Shown: positions 15,856 to 22,785 of the stretch, in pieces | How positions within the stretch are numbered: position 1 is the first letter of the stretch | Layout of the letters: each line of letters begins with the position of its first letter | Assembly (NCBI GenBank): GCA_903847205.1 | Contig: CAINDA010000022.1 | Location: 1-64,000, forward strand | From: an uncultured Bacteroidota bacterium | GTDB lineage: Bacteria; Bacteroidota; Bacteroidia; 2-12-FULL-35-15 | Length of the DNA: 64,000 nucleotides | Reading direction: 5' to 3' | Notes under the pieces: generated by a model | Database searches by the model: none | Seen by the model: only the letters and a program-made list of their open reading frames with translations | What the model was told of the DNA's origin: nothing | Translations under genes and position numbers: made by a program

Positions 15856-16269
15856 ATGAAACGTACAGCAAAAGCACAATGGAAAGGCAATCTAAAAGAC
15901 GGCAAAGGTGAATTAACAACACCTAGCGGAATTTTATCAAAAACAAATTACAGTTTCAAAACCCGTTTCGAAGAAGGAGTTACCGGAACAAACCCTGAAG
16001 AATTATTAGCCGCTGCACATGCCGGCTGCTTTACAATGGCTGTTGCAGCTATTTTAACACGCCAAGGATTAACTCCGGATTCACTTAATACCGAAGCCAT
16101 TGTTTCTATGGAAGGATTAAGCATAACTGGTGTTCATTTAATTATCAGCGGATCGGTGTCCGGCATTACTGCTGATGAATTTACTGCTGTTACAAAAGAG
16201 GCTGAAAAAAATTGTTTAATATCAAAAGTGTTAAGTATCCCTGTTACTTCAGAAGCTTCTTATATTTAA
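15856..16269 (+). CDS. OsmC/Ohr family peroxiredoxin-like protein
   Basis: The 137-residue protein opens with 'AKAQWKGNLKDGKGELTTPSG', typical of the OsmC subfamily. The two redox cysteines are Cys58 in 'LAAAHAGCFTMAVA' and Cys120 in 'EAEKNCLISKVLS'. It would reduce organic hydroperoxides in the cytoplasm, with the cysteines forming a transient disulfide. The length is normal for the family. It is a single-gene unit with its own -7 element and a terminator directly downstream. Confidence 0.95.
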   Translation: MKRTAKAQWKGNLKDGKGELTTPSGILSKTNYSFKTRFEEGVTGTNPEELLAAAHAGCFTMAVAAILTRQGLTPDSLNTEAIVSMEGLSITGVHLIISGSVSGITADEFTAVTKEAEKNCLISKVLSIPVTSEASYI

Positions 16270-17427: not shown

Positions 17428-17872
17428 AAAGAAAAACAAACTCACCGGTACTCCATCAGCTTACAAAATTGCCGTCAGCCTCCCGGTTAACAGGATAATA
17501 ACCCGGTAAAACAAAACTCAGATACTAAAAAAGACCTTCTGCTTAAGCAGAAGAGGCTGATACGTTTTGCAGGAAGCAATTTTGCTGTTGCAAAACAAGT
17601 TCACAGCATGTTAAAATGCGTTTCACATCCCTATATCTGGTACATCGGCTCCGCTTAACATAAATTCCGTACTGAAACTGCTGCAAAGGGAGCGTTAAAC
17701 TTCTTTTCGCATACCGGCAGAGTAAATTGCAGTGCTGATGGCGGCATTATTCATGCCCATGTTCAGGTAAAACGTTTGTGAAATATAATTTAACGTTCTG
17801 TTTTCTCCGACAAAAGCCCCCTATGAGAATTAATTTACACCGAAAAATACCATTTGCTTAAGCAAGAATACA
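17428..17872. other. intergenic stretch with a perfect palindrome
   Basis: No gene is seen. At 17536-17553 there is a perfect 18-bp palindrome, CTTCTGCTTAAGCAGAAG. The motif TTTGCTTAAGCAA recurs just before the tandem repeats, near 17852. The region leads into the 125-bp repeat array. Confidence 0.5.
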
Positions 17873-18372
17873 TTTTACGCCCCCGCGAACCAATTTGCAG
17901 GGCTGTAAACTAGTCCAAGAGGGCTGTAAAACAGAATTTACGTGCTGAAGAATTGGTTTTACGCCCGTAAAACACTATCACGGGGCGTAAAAACAGATTT
18001 TACGCCCCCGCGAATCAATTTGCAGGGCTGTAAACTAATCCACGGGGGCTGTAAAACAGAATTTACGTGCTGAAGAATTGGTTTTACGCCCGTAAAATAC
18101 CATCACGGGGTGTAAAAATTGATTTTACGCCCCCGCGATTCAATTTGCAGTGCTGTAAACTAATTCACGGGGGCTGTAAAATAGAATTTACGCGCTGAAG
18201 AATTGGTTTTACGTCCGTAAAATACCATCAGGGGGTGTAAAAATTGATTTTACGCCCCCGCGATTCAATTTGCAGGGCTGTAAACTAATCCACGGGGGCT
18301 GTAAAACAGAATTTACGCGCTGAAGAATTGTTTTTGCGCCCGTAAAACACCATAAGGGGGCGTAAAAATAGA
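17873..18372. repeat. four 125-bp tandem repeats, non-coding, hairpin-rich
   Basis: The phrase TTTTACGCCCCCGCGA starts at 17873, 17998, 18123 and 18248, exactly 125 bases apart. A worn fifth start falls at 18373. Units differ by scattered substitutions and no indels. Inside each unit GTTTTACGCCCGTAAAAC is a perfect palindrome (except where mutated). Across unit junctions GGGGCGTAAAA and TTTTACGCCCC form an 11-bp stem with a 5-base loop. Because 125 is not a multiple of three, the array cannot be a protein repeat. The flank 18373-18667 carries no gene. Confidence 0.9.
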
Positions 18373-18667
18373 ATTTACAGGCGTATGAGGAAGTTTTGCT
18401 GTTCAGTAAAGCCATTTCTCTAATCTGCCGTTATAAAATAATCTCCCTTCTTAATTTTTATTTATTCTAAATAAGGGGCAAATCCTTGAGCCTGTCTTGC
18501 AAAAACGGGTTTATTGAAATCTTCGCAGCTGCTGTAAGTATGCAAAATGCTTTGGAATTCGGTATTCAGTTAGGATAAGCCGGTTATTTGGGATAGGTTT
18601 GCGCAGGAAAAGCTGATATCGATTTCTTGAATTAAATAACCTATCAATGGACAAGAGAAAAACTACC

Positions 18668-18711
18668 GCTAACACTAAATGAGCGGTTTCACGGCCTATT
18701 TGGTCGTTAGC
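18668..18711 (+). other. attC-like recombination site, upstream
   Basis: GCTAAC (18668-18673) and GTTAGC (18706-18711) bracket an imperfect inverted repeat of 44 bp. Its inner arms partly pair (ACTAAATGAGCGG against GGCCTATTTGGTC). The layout matches an integron attC site, although the last core base departs from the strict GTTRRRY consensus. It ends 26 bases before the start codon of the HD-Hsp90 gene. Confidence 0.5.
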
Positions 18712-18737
18712 AGCAATTTTAAAACGCAATCACACAA

Positions 18738-21152
18738 ATGACAGACGATTATAAAGACGAATATTTACTAAGACTTTCTCAAAGCCTCTTATTTCAAACA
18801 TTAAAATCAAAATGCATTGAAAAAGATACAGAAGTTATAGCTCTAATTGAGAAAGTAGTTGATTATTCCGTTCAAAGAACTAAAACCATAATTAGACACA
18901 TGGGGGAATTTACCCTACATGACAGCGACCATTTGTTTAGAGTTCTATATTTGATGGAAAAACTTCTACCTAAAGAAGTTGTTGAAAATCTTTCAACGCC
19001 CGAATTGTTACTATTAATTGCATCTGCATTCATGCATGATATAGGAATGGCTCCTGAAGAAAAAGAAGTGTTAGCTTGGAGAAAAATTTGGGATAGTAGT
19101 GCAGAAATTGACGATGCAGAATTAGAAACTTATAATAACTTTAGAAGATACTACTATTCTAGACCAGACCAAATTAATATTATAGACAAATTAATACTTC
19201 AAGGCAAAAATAGCCAAGCTGATATAATTAAATCTTACATTATTACAGAGTATATCAGGCGTACACATGCAGAAAGAATAAAAGATATCACAGCTAGAGA
19301 TTGGAATGAAAAAATCAAATTTAGAGACAACGATTTAACTGTCGAGTTAGTACAATTATGTTTAAGTCACAATGAAGATGCTTTAAGTCTAGTTGAGTTT
19401 GACAAATATCTCATTTGTGGAGAAAACACATATGTTTGTTTACCTCTTATCGGTATCATTTTAAGGCTTTCAGATATTTTAGATTTTGATGGAAAAAGAA
19501 CGCCTTCAATTTTGTTTTCGCATCTTTACGTGAGAGAACCTATTTCTTTAAAAGAGTGGAATAAGCATCGCTCAATAGAATCTTGGGAAATTAATCAAGA
19601 TAATATTTTTTATTCAGCAAAGTGCTCTCATCCTGCGATTGAAGCATCAATTCATCAGTTTTGCGACTATATTGACCATGAATTATCTATTTGCAACAAT
19701 CTGATATCTGAACTAAACGATTTTCATAAAATTAAAAGACCTAGTCTTTTAATAAAAGTGCCGTACAAGGTTTCAAGAGATAAGATTACCACAAAAAAGA
19801 ATATTCATAACAAACCGCTATACATATACAAAGACACTCAATTCAATTTAAGCAAAAGACAAGTTATAGAACTTTTAATGGGAACTAAACTCTATGGCAA
19901 TCCAGAAGTTGCTTTAAGAGAATTAGTTCAAAATTCAATTGATGCGTGTCTTTTGAGAAAAGCTCAAGAAATAAAATGGGGAAATTTATTTCAACCAGAA
20001 ATTTCAATTAAGTATATCACAGAAAATAATGAAAAGGTTCTCATTGTAGAAGATAATGGAACAGGCATGGATCAATATATTATTGATAATTATTATTCAA
20101 AAGTAGGTTCATCGTTTTATAAGTCAACGGACTTCTATAATCTAGTTTCAGAATCTAATGCAGATTTTATACCTACTTCAAGATTTGGAATAGGCATTCT
20201 ATCTTGCTTTATGGTTGCTGATACACTTATTGTTGATACAAAAAGAGTATATGCTGAACACAAATCAAGCGACCCTCTAAATGTAACTGTTGAAGGACAA
20301 GATAGTATTTTTTGGATAAAAGATGGGAGTAGAAATTTACCAGGAACTACAACCAAATTAGTTCTTAGAGAAAGTAAAAATCCTTGGATAAATTATAACA
20401 GTGAACGATTTATAAAATCAGTAAAGAGCATAATTCCTAATCCACCATTTAAAATCAACATTATTACGGACGAAGATAACCAAAGTATTGATGAAAATGT
20501 TTTTAAAGAAATCTCAACAGAAGACTTAAAAGATTATTATTGGCAAACACATGAAAATGTAAGGTACTATACTATTAATTTTGACAATTTTGATTTAGGA
20601 ATCAAAGGCATAGCAGAAATAGGCATCTTGTTTAGAAAAAATTCTCCTGTTAATGAAATCAATCTAGAGTCAAAAGAGATCAACATAGAAGGGCACAAGT
20701 ATAATCTTGATAAGAGAATTTGGATAAGAGAAAATCAAATTGAAGAAGAATCTACATCAATAACAATTAATGATGATTATGATGTAACAACCCATAACAC
20801 TACGAGTTCAATCGCTAAATCAAAATCAAAACTATCATTGCACGGAATTGAAGTTCCGACAACATTATTTCCTGAAAGGTGGTATAAAAAAGAAAACCAA
20901 GCAATTCTTTCGTTTCCTTTTCCAATTTTGTTAATAATTGATATTTGTGGAAGAAGAGATTTAGATTTAAACTCCTCAAGAACTGAAGTAATACTCGGTG
21001 AAAAATGGGATGATTTTGAACAAACCTTGATCAAAGTAATTTGCTCAGAACTTGCAAAACAAATGAAACCAAAAGATTGGAGAATATTAAAAGAAATGTT
21101 TCACAAAATAACTAAACACCAACCATTTTTTGAAGCAATAAAAGAAATATAA
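18738..21152 (+). CDS. HD-domain plus Hsp90-type (GHKL) ATPase protein
   Basis: The 804-residue protein has two enzymatic modules and no signal peptide. The N-terminal HD-superfamily phosphohydrolase-like part (about 40-335) has HDSDH at 61-65, HD at 100-101 (MHDIGM), His177, His211 and Asp246 (LRLSDILD). The GHKL ATPase module (about 370-620) has the N box LRELVQNSIDA (Asn399), the G1 box DNGTGM at 439-444, the G2 box RFGIGILS at 482-489, and GTTT at 536-539, as in Hsp90. The C-terminal about 180 residues are unassigned. The HD-Hsp90 combination occurs in genes thought to act in biological conflict; a defence role here is inference. The gene is visibly more AT-rich than its neighbours and is bracketed by two attC-like sites, with only 7 bases between the stop codon and the second site. 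Confidence 0.88.
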   Translation: MTDDYKDEYLLRLSQSLLFQTLKSKCIEKDTEVIALIEKVVDYSVQRTKTIIRHMGEFTLHDSDHLFRVLYLMEKLLPKEVVENLSTPELLLLIASAFMHDIGMAPEEKEVLAWRKIWDSSAEIDDAELETYNNFRRYYYSRPDQINIIDKLILQGKNSQADIIKSYIITEYIRRTHAERIKDITARDWNEKIKFRDNDLTVELVQLCLSHNEDALSLVEFDKYLICGENTYVCLPLIGIILRLSDILDFDGKRTPSILFSHLYVREPISLKEWNKHRSIESWEINQDNIFYSAKCSHPAIEASIHQFCDYIDHELSICNNLISELNDFHKIKRPSLLIKVPYKVSRDKITTKKNIHNKPLYIYKDTQFNLSKRQVIELLMGTKLYGNPEVALRELVQNSIDACLLRKAQEIKWGNLFQPEISIKYITENNEKVLIVEDNGTGMDQYIIDNYYSKVGSSFYKSTDFYNLVSESNADFIPTSRFGIGILSCFMVADTLIVDTKRVYAEHKSSDPLNVTVEGQDSIFWIKDGSRNLPGTTTKLVLRESKNPWINYNSERFIKSVKSIIPNPPFKINIITDEDNQSIDENVFKEISTEDLKDYYWQTHENVRYYTINFDNFDLGIKGIAEIGILFRKNSPVNEINLESKEINIEGHKYNLDKRIWIRENQIEEESTSITINDDYDVTTHNTTSSIAKSKSKLSLHGIEVPTTLFPERWYKKENQAILSFPFPILLIIDICGRRDLDLNSSRTEVILGEKWDDFEQTLIKVICSELAKQMKPKDWRILKEMFHKITKHQPFFEAIKEI

Positions 21153-21159
21153 AAACTGC

Positions 21160-21225
21160 TGCTAACATTAACTTGCCGACACGCTCAAAAGCCGAATGCC
21201 CGGCATCGCATATTTGACCGTTAGC
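21160..21225 (+). other. attC-like recombination site, downstream
   Basis: GCTAAC (21160-21165) and GTTAGC (21220-21225) bracket a 66-bp imperfect inverted repeat containing a GC-rich inner hairpin (GCCGAATGCCCGGC). It has the same orientation and end sequences as the site at 18668, and the inner right arm is alike (TATTTGRYC before GTTAGC in both). It sits directly after the HD-Hsp90 stop codon, as attC sites do in gene cassettes. Confidence 0.5.
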
Positions 21226-21280
21226 ATGTAAACCCCCTAAAAATCGTACTGTATAAAAGCAGATTAAAAATCCCCCGCGG

Positions 21281-21329
21281 GTCGGGATTTGCAATCCCGA
21301 CAAAAGAGTTAGGGATTTGTAATCCCGCT
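21281..21329. repeat. two GGGATTTGYAATCCC palindromes
   Basis: GTCGGGATT and AATCCCGAC (21281-21301) form a perfect 9-bp stem. A second, shorter copy (GGGATT TGT AATCCC) follows at about 21312. The family recurs near 21950, 22680 and 28375-28470. Confidence 0.7.
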
Positions 21330-21523
21330 TAATTCAGTCTACAAAAGGATCACATGTTATCCATAAAATAAATCATTCCCCTCTGTATCTTTTCAAAAAA
21401 ACTGCATTATGAGTTTAAATTGCATACATTGTACAATGCAAAAGCGGAGACAAGAAACCGCGGCAGAAACAGGGCGGCACCCGAAAAGCCTTATGAGTAG
21501 GGGAAATTAAAACCTTAAATAAA

Positions 21524-21919
21524 ATGAGAACAAAAATTATTATTTCACTTGTTGTTATAGTAACAGCAATGAACTCATTTGCACAAAAACAAAACGACAA
21601 ATCGCTTTACACCCTCTGCGGTATGCAGGGAGGCAGTGATTGTAAAATAACATTAGCCGACTTTAATAAATGTAAAAAGGAATTAACACCAGTTGACAAA
21701 AAAATTACAATAGTTTCTTTTACCGTAGCAATGAGTGTTGACAGCTTGTTCGTGGATTATGAGAATACAGGCGGCGTTTTTTCTCAGAAAACAATCGATG
21801 GTATCGATAAAGCCACAAGTAATAAAAAGTTCAGCCATAAAATACTAATAGAAAGTGTTCAGGTTTTAGAAGGAGGGGTGAAGAAGAAGGTAAAAGGCAT
21901 GAATATTAAAATCGAATAA
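21524..21919 (+). CDS. small secreted protein, GldM C-terminal-domain-like, copy 1
   Basis: The 131-residue protein has a signal peptide (about 1-20, MNSFAQ) and a single domain. The pattern 'CKITLADFNKC', 'KITIVSFTVAMSVD', 'GGVFSQKTIDGI', 'KILIESVQVLEGG' and 'VKGMNIKI' fits the last Ig-like domain of the T9SS/gliding protein GldM. This was recognised by pattern, so it is moderate evidence. Free-standing copies of this domain are seen in Bacteroidota without known function. The protein is identical to that encoded 731 bp downstream. Confidence 0.75.
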   Translation: MRTKIIISLVVIVTAMNSFAQKQNDKSLYTLCGMQGGSDCKITLADFNKCKKELTPVDKKITIVSFTVAMSVDSLFVDYENTGGVFSQKTIDGIDKATSNKKFSHKILIESVQVLEGGVKKKVKGMNIKIE

Positions 21920-21978
21920 AATATTTTTTAAAACTACGCCCCCGGCATCTCTCTGGCTGAGATATGCAATCCACGTTA

Positions 21979-22006
21979 AGCGCAGCGTCCCGCTGCGCTT
22001 TTTTTA
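21979..22006 (+). terminator. intrinsic terminator, duplication unit 1
   Basis: The perfect stem AGCGCAGCG / CGCTGCGCT has a 3-base loop (TCC) and is followed by a T run. It lies 60 bases after the copy 1 stop codon. Confidence 0.85.
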
Positions 22007-22254
22007 ACCTGCATCTTGCCGGTCCAGGAAAAGGTTTGATGGACAGTTTTTGCCATTATAGCCAAGTTTACAAAAGTATCTCACACGTTATCCAGAAAAT
22101 AAATCACTCCCTTTTGTATCTTTTCAAAAAAACTGCATTATGAGTTTAAATTGCATACATTGTACAATGCAAAAGCGGAGACAAGAAACCGCGGCAAAAA
22201 CAGGGCGGCACCCGAAAAGCCTTATGAGTAGGGGAAATTAAAACCTTAAATAAA

Positions 22255-22650
22255 ATGAGAACAAAAATTATTATTTCACTTGTTGTTATAGTAACAGCAA
22301 TGAACTCATTTGCACAAAAACAAAACGATAAATCGCTTTACACCCTCTGCGGTATGCAGGGAGGCAGCGATTGTAAAATAACTTTAGCCGACTTTAATAA
22401 ATGTAAAAAGGAATTAACACCCGTTGACAAAAAAATTACAATCGTTTCTTTTACCGTAGCAATGAGTGTTGACAGCTTGTTCGTGGATTATGAGAATACA
22501 GGCGGCGTTTTTTCTCAGAAAACAATCGATGGTATCGATAAAGCCACAAGTAATAAAAAGTTCAGCCATAAAATATTAATAGAAAGTGTTCAGGTTTTAG
22601 AAGGAGGGGTGAAGAAGAAGGTAAAAGGCATGAATATTAAAATCGAATAA
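22255..22650 (+). CDS. small secreted protein, GldM C-terminal-domain-like, copy 2
   Basis: Its 131 residues are identical to copy 1. I see six base differences between the two coding regions (for example GAC/GAT, AGT/AGC, CCA/CCC, CTA/TTA), and all of them are synonymous. The duplication is therefore old enough to gather silent changes while the protein has been held constant. Both copies have the same upstream palindrome and their own terminator, so both are probably expressed. The product is exported to the periplasm. Confidence 0.75.
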   Translation: MRTKIIISLVVIVTAMNSFAQKQNDKSLYTLCGMQGGSDCKITLADFNKCKKELTPVDKKITIVSFTVAMSVDSLFVDYENTGGVFSQKTIDGIDKATSNKKFSHKILIESVQVLEGGVKKKVKGMNIKIE

Positions 22651-22710
22651 AGTATTTTTTTAAAACTAGGCCCCCGGCACCTCTCTGGCTGGGATATGCA
22701 ATCCACGTTA

Positions 22711-22736
22711 AGCGCAGCGTCCCGCTGCGCTTTCTT
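22711..22736 (+). terminator. intrinsic terminator, duplication unit 2
   Basis: It has the same AGCGCAGCG / CGCTGCGCT stem as unit 1, but the T tail is interrupted (TTTCTTT). It also lies just before the converging end of the large adhesin gene. Confidence 0.8.
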
Positions 22737-22785
22737 TAACCGGCATCCTGCCGGGGCAAGTGCCAGAGTTCAAACGAAAAACATT

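What the first reader, a model, noticed from the sequence alone, without database searches (positions are those of the whole stretch)
18660..21230. HD + Hsp90-type ATPase gene that looks like a single mobile cassette
One large, AT-rich gene joins an HD phosphohydrolase-like domain to a GHKL/Hsp90 ATPase with all nucleotide-binding boxes intact. It is bracketed by two same-orientation attC-like sites and sits among repeats and duplications. HD and GHKL domains occur in NTP-dependent conflict systems, so an undescribed one-gene defence system is a fair hypothesis.
Basis: partly seen in the sequence, partly recalled or inferred. Interest (0 to 1): 0.8.

Follow-up and report, generated by a model that had tools for sequence, protein, structure and literature searches.

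The report
Mobile HD–Hsp90 gene in integron-type cassette
A single gene that fuses an HD phosphohydrolase domain to the engine of the chaperone Hsp90, and that looks like an anti-phage protein, sits between two recombination-type sites of a cassette family scattered through this Bacteroidota genome, in which no integron integrase was recognised.

Summary
The 804-aa gene at 18738-21152 joins an HD-CE domain (PF24391) to Hsp90 ATPase plus middle domains, active-site boxes intact. The bracketing sites belong to an attC-like family: a covariance model built from 12 other sites of the same genome, window sites excluded, matches the window only at 21160-21226 (E 6.7e-9) and, weakly, 18667-18712 (E 8e-4). 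The family occurs in 6 of 36 genus genomes; of 14 own sites 0 lie inside genes and 11 touch a same-strand gene. No integron integrase reaches its cut-off. A 90%-identical protein in Runella shares DNA only from one site's right core to the next site's left core, but sits there in different attC-like sites. No orthologue was found in 35 same-genus genomes. Relatives (mostly 45-63%, down to 33%) carry nine phylum labels; 17 of 52 adjoin OLD/SMC-type ATPase genes and two lie between type III Mod and Res. Best reading: a cassette-borne, probable one-gene counter-invader system; anti-phage function is inferred, not shown. By-product: Runella's four arrays end in a shared element, with a non-IntI Tyr recombinase beside two of them, so an IntI-independent, integron-like platform in Bacteroidota is possible.

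The parts
18667..18712 (+). attC-like site 1 (short form): left border of the cassette; predicted crossover just after G18706 of GTTAGCA
   Evidence: 24.1 bits, E 8e-4 with model R1 built from 12 other genome sites, a weak score; hairpin; further short sites of 44-55 nt in related genomes at 27-36 bits
18707..21220 (+). inferred mobile cassette (2514 bp), from R' of site 1 to R' of site 2
   Evidence: Runella L087 is 82% identical over 18705-21165; no further homology adjoins
18738..21152 (+). HD-CE + Hsp90-type ATPase gene, 804 aa
18903..19688 (+). HD-CE domain (residues 56-317)
   Evidence: PF24391 183 bits; invariant HD residues; model of residues 1-336, pLDDT 86.9
19845..21149 (+). Hsp90 N-terminal ATPase + middle domain (residues 370-804); no C-terminal Hsp90 dimerisation domain
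   Evidence: VIA-align Z 27.0, 341 aligned, rmsd 4.9 to TRAP1 7kcl over 370-804; invariant E395, D439, G-box, R748
21160..21226 (+). attC-like site 2 (12 model positions missing, mostly from the left arm): right border and the cassette's own site
   Evidence: 42.4 bits, E 6.7e-9; copies at 78-94% elsewhere in the genome
17739..18488 (.). five 125-bp tandem repeats just upstream of the cassette; an 80% copy of this block precedes a Tyr-recombinase gene elsewhere in the genome

Best explanation
The gene is one cassette of an attC-type gene-cassette family that is dispersed in this Bacteroidota genus. It encodes a stand-alone counter-invader protein. Shown by sequence: the cassette borders, the intact HD and Hsp90 (N + middle) active sites, the patchy distribution of the family, and neighbourhood with OLD/SMC-type ATPase or restriction genes in a good part of the relatives. 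Inferred: the Hsp90 module binds ATP and closes when it meets an infection signal (a phage protein, or a client such as a partner ATPase). This frees the HD site, which hydrolyses a phosphoester (nucleotide or nucleic acid), stopping phage growth by depletion or dormancy. Mobility is inferred to be by site-specific recombination at the GTTA core; the recombinase is not identified.
For: Cassette: model R1 (12 sites, window excluded) hits the window only at the two borders; 13 sites in the own genome at E<=0.01, site 2 included, and 6 of 36 genus genomes positive (only 131 first-look candidates per genome were scored, so counts are lower bounds); 0 of 14 own sites inside ORFs (random places 72%), 11 of 14 with a same-strand ORF within 130 nt (random 10%), 1 of 14 on the opposite strand; arm pairing 92.6% of cells against 28-34% when slid; Runella DNA homology ends at the two cores. 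Conflict protein: HD-CE and Hsp90 sites invariant in 49 sequences; nine phylum labels among relatives; 24 of 52 relatives have a same-strand gene within 150 bp upstream, and in 17 of 52 an adjacent gene falls in a BLAST cluster whose scanned member is an OLD/SMC/AAA_13/AAA_23-type ATPase; two lie between type III Mod and Res; AAA_21, AAA_23 and SMC_N match 10-11 of 114 near proteins each, 3 or fewer of 86 far ones; PADLOC mad3 14, AriA 8, GajA and Old 6 of 114 near, mad3 3 and AriA 2 of 86 far; another cassette gene of the same site family is a DRT8 reverse transcriptase.
Against: No integron integrase over cut-off in the genome (best 128.9 bits, cut-off 265), so the cassettes may now be immobile. 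Site 1 is weak, at the level of opposite-strand echoes. Shuffling 3' letters between sites leaves pairing unchanged (91.9% against 92.6%, 87 of 500 shuffles as high), so the pairing rests on conserved letters, not on covariation. The bare R-box motifs are rarer than their reversed controls. R1 finds no site in 53 relatives' loci, so relatives do not travel in this kind of cassette. No PADLOC defence model matches. Here and in Runella the gene has no defence partner. Far genes in relatives' loci include restriction genes too. Phylum labels cluster on the tree (12 changes, least 8, shuffled mean 20), so cross-phylum moves are few and some may be mis-binned MAG contigs. No activity has been measured.
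Confidence: 0.65

Rival explanations
1. A mobile cassette, but not defence: a stress-related chaperone/phosphohydrolase (nucleotide clean-up or protein quality control) useful in some habitats.
For: No partner gene within 150 bp here or in Runella; genes beside other sites of the family match varied Pfam domains (ankyrin, MerC, PIN, saccharopine dehydrogenase, one each of 40 scanned); no PADLOC match.
Against: OLD/SMC/type III neighbours in relatives; patchy distribution.
Confidence: 0.22
2. The bracketing hairpins are a dispersed non-coding repeat (REP/MITE-like), not recombination sites; the gene lies between two copies by chance.
For: No integrase recognised in the genome; many sites are single and scattered; covariation is weak, 2 of 17 pairs, and shuffles do as well.
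Against: Polarity and position next to same-strand genes, never inside ORFs; outer R-box letters vary between copies while the GTT/AAC cores do not; homology to Runella ends at the cores; C54 and C65 hold consecutive site-gene-site units.
Confidence: 0.1
3. A diverged chromosomal HtpG paralogue with a housekeeping role.
For: Residues 366-626 match Hsp90-family models.
Against: Lacks the Hsp90 C-terminal domain; the genome has a separate HtpG-type hit in a 634-aa frame at C44; no orthologue in 35 same-genus genomes.
Confidence: 0.03

Closest known systems
CALIN / integron gene cassettes (attC sites without integrase)
   Same: Genes starting shortly after a GTTA core and ending shortly before an AAC core; palindromic site with two arm pairs; genome-specific site family; two or three consecutive sites at C54 and C65
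   Different: Bacteroidota host, for which the IntegronFinder 2.0 paper (PMC9024848, passages read) reports earlier In0 only and one complete integron in Salinibacter; R-box outer letters depart from the RYYYAAC/GTTRRRY consensus (consensus recalled); not run through IntegronFinder
HD-CE (PF24391) proteins
   Same: Profile match 183 bits and conserved HD residues
   Different: Fused to Hsp90 N + middle domains over the whole C-terminal half; none of the 12 papers listed for 'HD-CE' uses it in this sense, judged by title
Hsp90 / HtpG
   Same: N-box, G-boxes and the middle-domain Arg loop (roles recalled); Z 27 to TRAP1 over 370-804
   Different: No C-terminal dimerisation domain; far below the HtpG cut-off (77 against 371 bits)
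OLD / Gabija-like and AAA_13 ATPase defence genes
   Same: Adjacent genes in 17 of 52 relatives by cluster
   Different: Absent beside the window gene

Membership tests
HD-CE (PF24391) | Match over Pfam gathering score | tested here: met
   183.4 against 27 bits
HD phosphohydrolase | Metal-binding H...HD...D residues | tested here: met
   H61/H65, H100 D101, H177, H211, D246 invariant in 49 sequences; activity untested
SAMHD1-type HD fold | Structural match to SAMHD1 | tested here: inconclusive
   Foldseek lists SAMHD1 9mr6 only at E 0.27; the VIA rows shown are exopolyphosphatase, a putative metal-dependent phosphohydrolase and PDE, Z 9.5-11.5, low for helical folds
Hsp90/HtpG | N-terminal ATPase and middle domain | tested here: met
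   Z 27.0, 341 aligned, rmsd 4.9 to TRAP1 7kcl
Hsp90/HtpG | C-terminal dimerisation domain and HtpG score cut-off | tested here: not met
   Protein ends with the middle domain; 77.3 against 371 bits
Integron gene cassette | attC-type palindrome with R and L arms at the gene's 3' end, same orientation | tested here: met
   site 2 itself lacks part of the left arm
Integron gene cassette | Match to the standard attC model (IntegronFinder) | not testable with these tools
   model not available here
Integron | IntI integrase (TIGR02249 over cut-off) | tested here: not met
   Own genome best 128.9 bits, cut-off 265; 0 of 59 genomes (own included) over it
Integron | attI site and recombination at the core | not testable with these tools
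   needs reads or experiment
Known anti-phage systems (PADLOC) | Match to a system's core protein | tested here: not met
   Only a weak match of the GHKL part to a type II REase model, E 5e-4

The most novel reading that the evidence does not exclude
Bacteroidota possess their own integron-like platform run by tyrosine recombinases that are not IntI. In Runella sp. MFBS21 four cassette arrays each end at a conserved element of up to ~160 bp with inverted repeats (a candidate attI) that touches the GTTA end of the first attC-like site, and share a 66-bp far end (partial in one). At two of them a Phage_int_SAM_5-type recombinase lies on the other side of the element, convergent with the cassettes, a polarity unlike classical integrons. 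The window's gene is a cassette that has moved between two such systems with different site families, and the arrays act as libraries that include defence genes.
Probability: 0.35. Interest if true: 0.88.

Novelty: new variant of a known kind. Interest (0 to 1): 0.72.

Why it matters
Integrons in Vibrio and on mobile elements have lately been named libraries of anti-phage genes (Darracq 2025, Getz 2025, Kieffer 2025: seen only as references and in passages of PMC12444791). A cassette system of this kind without IntI in Bacteroidota would extend that idea to another major phylum and raise the question of which recombinase moves the cassettes. The gene itself offers a one-protein test of how an Hsp90 engine could control an HD effector.

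Tried and rejected
Empty site in sister genomes: the neighbour at 15856-16269 (I call it OsmC-like from recall) is found in 15 of 35 other genus genomes, but the two neighbourhoods that I fetched share little else with the window, so no empty site could be shown. A simple R/L-arm descriptor for attC sites at relatives' gene ends was not specific (54 and 52 of 371 control genes also scored) and was dropped. A first short R-box scan of relatives gave no clear class. In one search a loose pattern for Runella sites also returned many chance matches; the sites that I name were picked by eye. Viral contigs: the first scan found nothing, the second one relative at 37% (L143). I suspected that the Gammaproteobacteria relative L108 lay in an integron because coordinates looked alike; the contigs differ. 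Seven of 49 relatives' host genomes carry a true IntI; in six of them its contigs have other lengths than the relative's, and in Methylophilus it is about 0.5 Mb away, so no relative was seen in such an array, though fragmented assemblies leave it open. Foldseek on the HD domain alone gave no match at E <= 0.001.

Papers: searches for HD-CE, for HD/Hsp90 defence and for integron-like systems of Bacteroidetes listed no paper whose title is on this protein or platform, in an open-access library only. From these lists I read none, except passages of PMC9024848 and PMC8618304; the two CoCoNuTs papers, the two, and PMC8138268 and PMC5385486 stay unread. In the eLife 2020 paper on NTP-dependent conflict systems the words HD-CE and Hsp90 do not occur in the main text. 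In the DefensePredictor paper a word search found one HATPase mention in a legend.

Rows dropped: of 56 relatives 52 went into neighbour counts (without L118, L140, L141, L142) and 48 plus the window into A4 (also without L120 with an internal stop, L121 and L136 whose span is not one open frame, L125 cut by its contig end). Near proteins: 114 of 181 listed were scanned; far proteins: 86 of 136, taken in locus order, so the sets are not random samples, and genes were mechanical ORFs of 100 aa or more. Those scans print only the 25 top families. The ten partner proteins were picked by me as cluster representatives.

Full report
OBSERVATION. The gene runs from 18738 to 21152 (804 aa). Pfam gives HD-CE (PF24391, 183 bits, residues 56-317), a weaker iHD-CE, and a GHKL ATPase domain at 389-503. 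NCBIfam gives sub-threshold Hsp90-family matches over 366-626, and solved Hsp90 N-domains are the best sequence matches in the PDB. PADLOC has only a weak match of the GHKL part to a type II restriction enzyme model (E 5e-4).

STRUCTURE. An AlphaFold model from 49 sequences (mean pLDDT 84.5, pTM 0.68) places residues 370-804 on the N-terminal plus middle domains of Hsp90: TRAP1 7kcl Z 27.0, 341 residues, rmsd 4.9; 4z1i Z 27.1, 347 residues, rmsd 9.8. The protein ends where the Hsp90 C-terminal dimerisation domain would start (domain borders recalled). The HD part alone (residues 1-336, pLDDT 86.9) has no Foldseek match at E <= 0.001; the VIA rows shown are exopolyphosphatases, a putative phosphohydrolase and PDE catalytic domains at Z 9.5-11.5, which is low for a helical fold. 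HD residues, ATPase boxes and R748 of the LNSSR loop are invariant in all 49 sequences. That E395, D439 and R748 correspond to the catalytic Glu, nucleotide Asp and middle-domain Arg of Hsp90 is from my recall.

THE BORDERS ARE A SITE FAMILY. BLAST of 21140-21330 against the own genome found eleven further copies of the right border at 78-94% identity over 45-57 nt, and a local search added one more at C54. Read out in full, these twelve are 78-81-nt palindromes: NNN-N-AAC (N mostly C or T), AAATATGC, a variable middle, GCATATTT, GTT-R-NNN. The GTT and AAC cores never vary; the outer R-box letters do. That is what site-specific insertion after G|TT predicts (recalled from integron biology). 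With the pairing given, 92.6% of cells are paired against 28-34% when slid; but shuffled letters do as well (91.9%), and only 2 of 17 pairs covary. Model R1, built from these 12 without the window sites, finds in the window only 21160-21226 (42.4 bits, E 6.7e-9) and 18667-18712 (24.1 bits, E 8e-4). Site 2 has lost part of its left arm. Site 1 is a short form with a weak score: opposite-strand echoes of good sites score 20-26 bits, and one lone place in L241 scores 26.4. Short sites of 44-55 nt recur in other genus genomes at 27-36 bits. The bare motifs GCTAAC...GTTAGC are not commoner than reversed controls.

PLACEMENT. R1 finds 13 sites in the own genome at E <= 0.01 and sites in 6 of 36 genus genomes (lower bounds, since 131 candidates per genome were scored). 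Of 14 own sites, the two of the window included, 0 lie inside an ORF (72% of 4000 random places do), 11 have a same-strand ORF ending just before or starting just after (random 10%), and 1 has one on the opposite strand. C54 and C65 show consecutive site-gene-site units; four of their five sites have an ORF starting 27-31 nt later. This is the arrangement of integron cassettes. No protein of the genome reaches the IntI cut-off (best 128.9 of 265 bits; 0 of 59 genomes over it), so the nearest label is CALIN. The Natural History of Integrons (PMC8618304, passages read) lists Bacteroidota among phyla with integrons and names off-target insertion, loss of intI and rearrangement as origins of CALINs. 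[quoted passage not shown]

THE CASSETTE HAS MOVED. Of 56 relatives found in 84,980 species genomes, the closest is Runella sp. MFBS21, 90% identical in protein. DNA homology (82%) runs from 18705 to 21165, i.e. from the right core of site 1 to the left core of site 2, and stops. The Runella gene lies between two longer attC-like sites of another type. So the same unit sits in two genomes inside two different site families. R1 finds none of its sites in 53 relatives' loci. In 35 same-genus genomes (64-100% complete) no match reaches the HD half.

RELATIVES AND FUNCTION. The full-length relatives besides Runella (33-63% identity in A4) carry nine phylum labels: Bacteroidota, Pseudomonadota, Bacillota, Ignavibacteriota, Thermodesulfobacteriota, Nitrospirota, Acidobacteriota, Kiritimatiellota and Cloacimonadota. 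On a quick tree of 49 the labels need 12 changes (least 8, shuffled mean 20), so they cluster, with a few crossings; many hosts are MAGs. In 24 of 52 loci a same-strand gene lies within 150 bp upstream, and in 17 of 52 an adjacent gene belongs to a BLAST cluster whose scanned member is an OLD+TOPRIM, AAA_13, AAA_23 or SMC-type ATPase. Of the ten partner proteins scanned seven are such ATPases, two are Mod and Res of one type III system that encloses the gene in two MAGs, and one is a conjugation ATPase. Near proteins match AAA_21 11, AAA_23 11, SMC_N 10, AAA_13 8 and AAA_15 8 of 114; far ones AAA_21 3 of 86, and none of the others is among the printed families, so at most one each. PADLOC shows the same trend, but far genes include restriction genes too. 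More distant plasmid relatives (32% and 25% identity) lie within 6 kb of Shedu and AbiEii-type genes. One gene of the same site family in G016 is a DRT8 reverse transcriptase. I therefore favour a counter-invader role; how the Hsp90 engine gates the HD site is inference.

BY-PRODUCT. In Runella, copies of an element of about 160 bp (83-91% identical; 99 bp at C18; inverted TTTGATAGCAAA repeats) touch the GTTA end of the first attC-like site at four loci, and a weaker 65-bp match lies at a fifth place. Behind the four lie rows of genes on one strand with further attC-like sites between some of them, and a shared 66-bp far end (partial at C18). At two loci (C33, C5) a tyrosine recombinase with the Phage_int_SAM_5 domain lies on the other side of the element, the two being 27% identical; at C12 and C18 none was seen. 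The Runella genome has no IntI match at E <= 1e-50. In the window's own genome an 80% copy of the tandem-repeat block that precedes the cassette lies just before a 547-aa recombinase gene at the end of contig C25. These are leads, not proof, that a recombinase other than IntI serves such cassettes.

VERDICT. An integron-type cassette carrying a probable one-gene defence protein: the kind is known, while the host phylum, the lack of a recognised IntI and the HD-Hsp90 cargo are unusual.

Noticed in passing
Runella sp. MFBS21: L087/L300, L297, L298, L299: Four cassette arrays with a shared proximal element (up to ~160 bp) and a 66-bp distal repeat; Phage_int_SAM_5-type Tyr recombinases beside two of them, convergent with the cassettes.
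   Followed up: partly
window 17739-18488 and G000:C25:70452-71242: Five 125-bp hairpin-rich tandem repeats upstream of the cassette; an 80% copy of the block precedes two Tyr-recombinase genes (547 and 288 aa) at a contig end.
   Followed up: partly
window 21350-22755: 731-bp tandem duplication giving two identical 131-aa proteins that look secreted.
   Followed up: no
window 21263-21330: GC-rich palindromic repeat (CCCGCGGGTCGGGATTTGCAATCCCGAC) with copies at 76-95% elsewhere in the genome (e.g. C35, C13, C54).
   Followed up: no
window 18414-18602: Stretch just before site 1 repeated at 76-79% at C61 and C45, in part at C43; the fetched stretches there hold no R1 site.
   Followed up: no
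L262 (G016:C58): DRT8 reverse-transcriptase gene starting 23 nt after a site of the same family.
   Followed up: partly
L104 and L106: HD-Hsp90 gene lies between type III Mod and Res genes in a Lutibacter MAG and a MAG labelled Chitinophaga pinensis, 88% identical over 5.5 kb.
   Followed up: partly
L143 (IMG/VR UViG_3300011805_000010): A 37% relative on a contig classed as viral.
   Followed up: no
L098 and L100: HD-Hsp90 genes 89% identical at DNA level beside OLD-type genes that do not align in the same DNA block; homology runs through a downstream hairpin and stops near CCG|TTA, another possible cassette end.
   Followed up: partly
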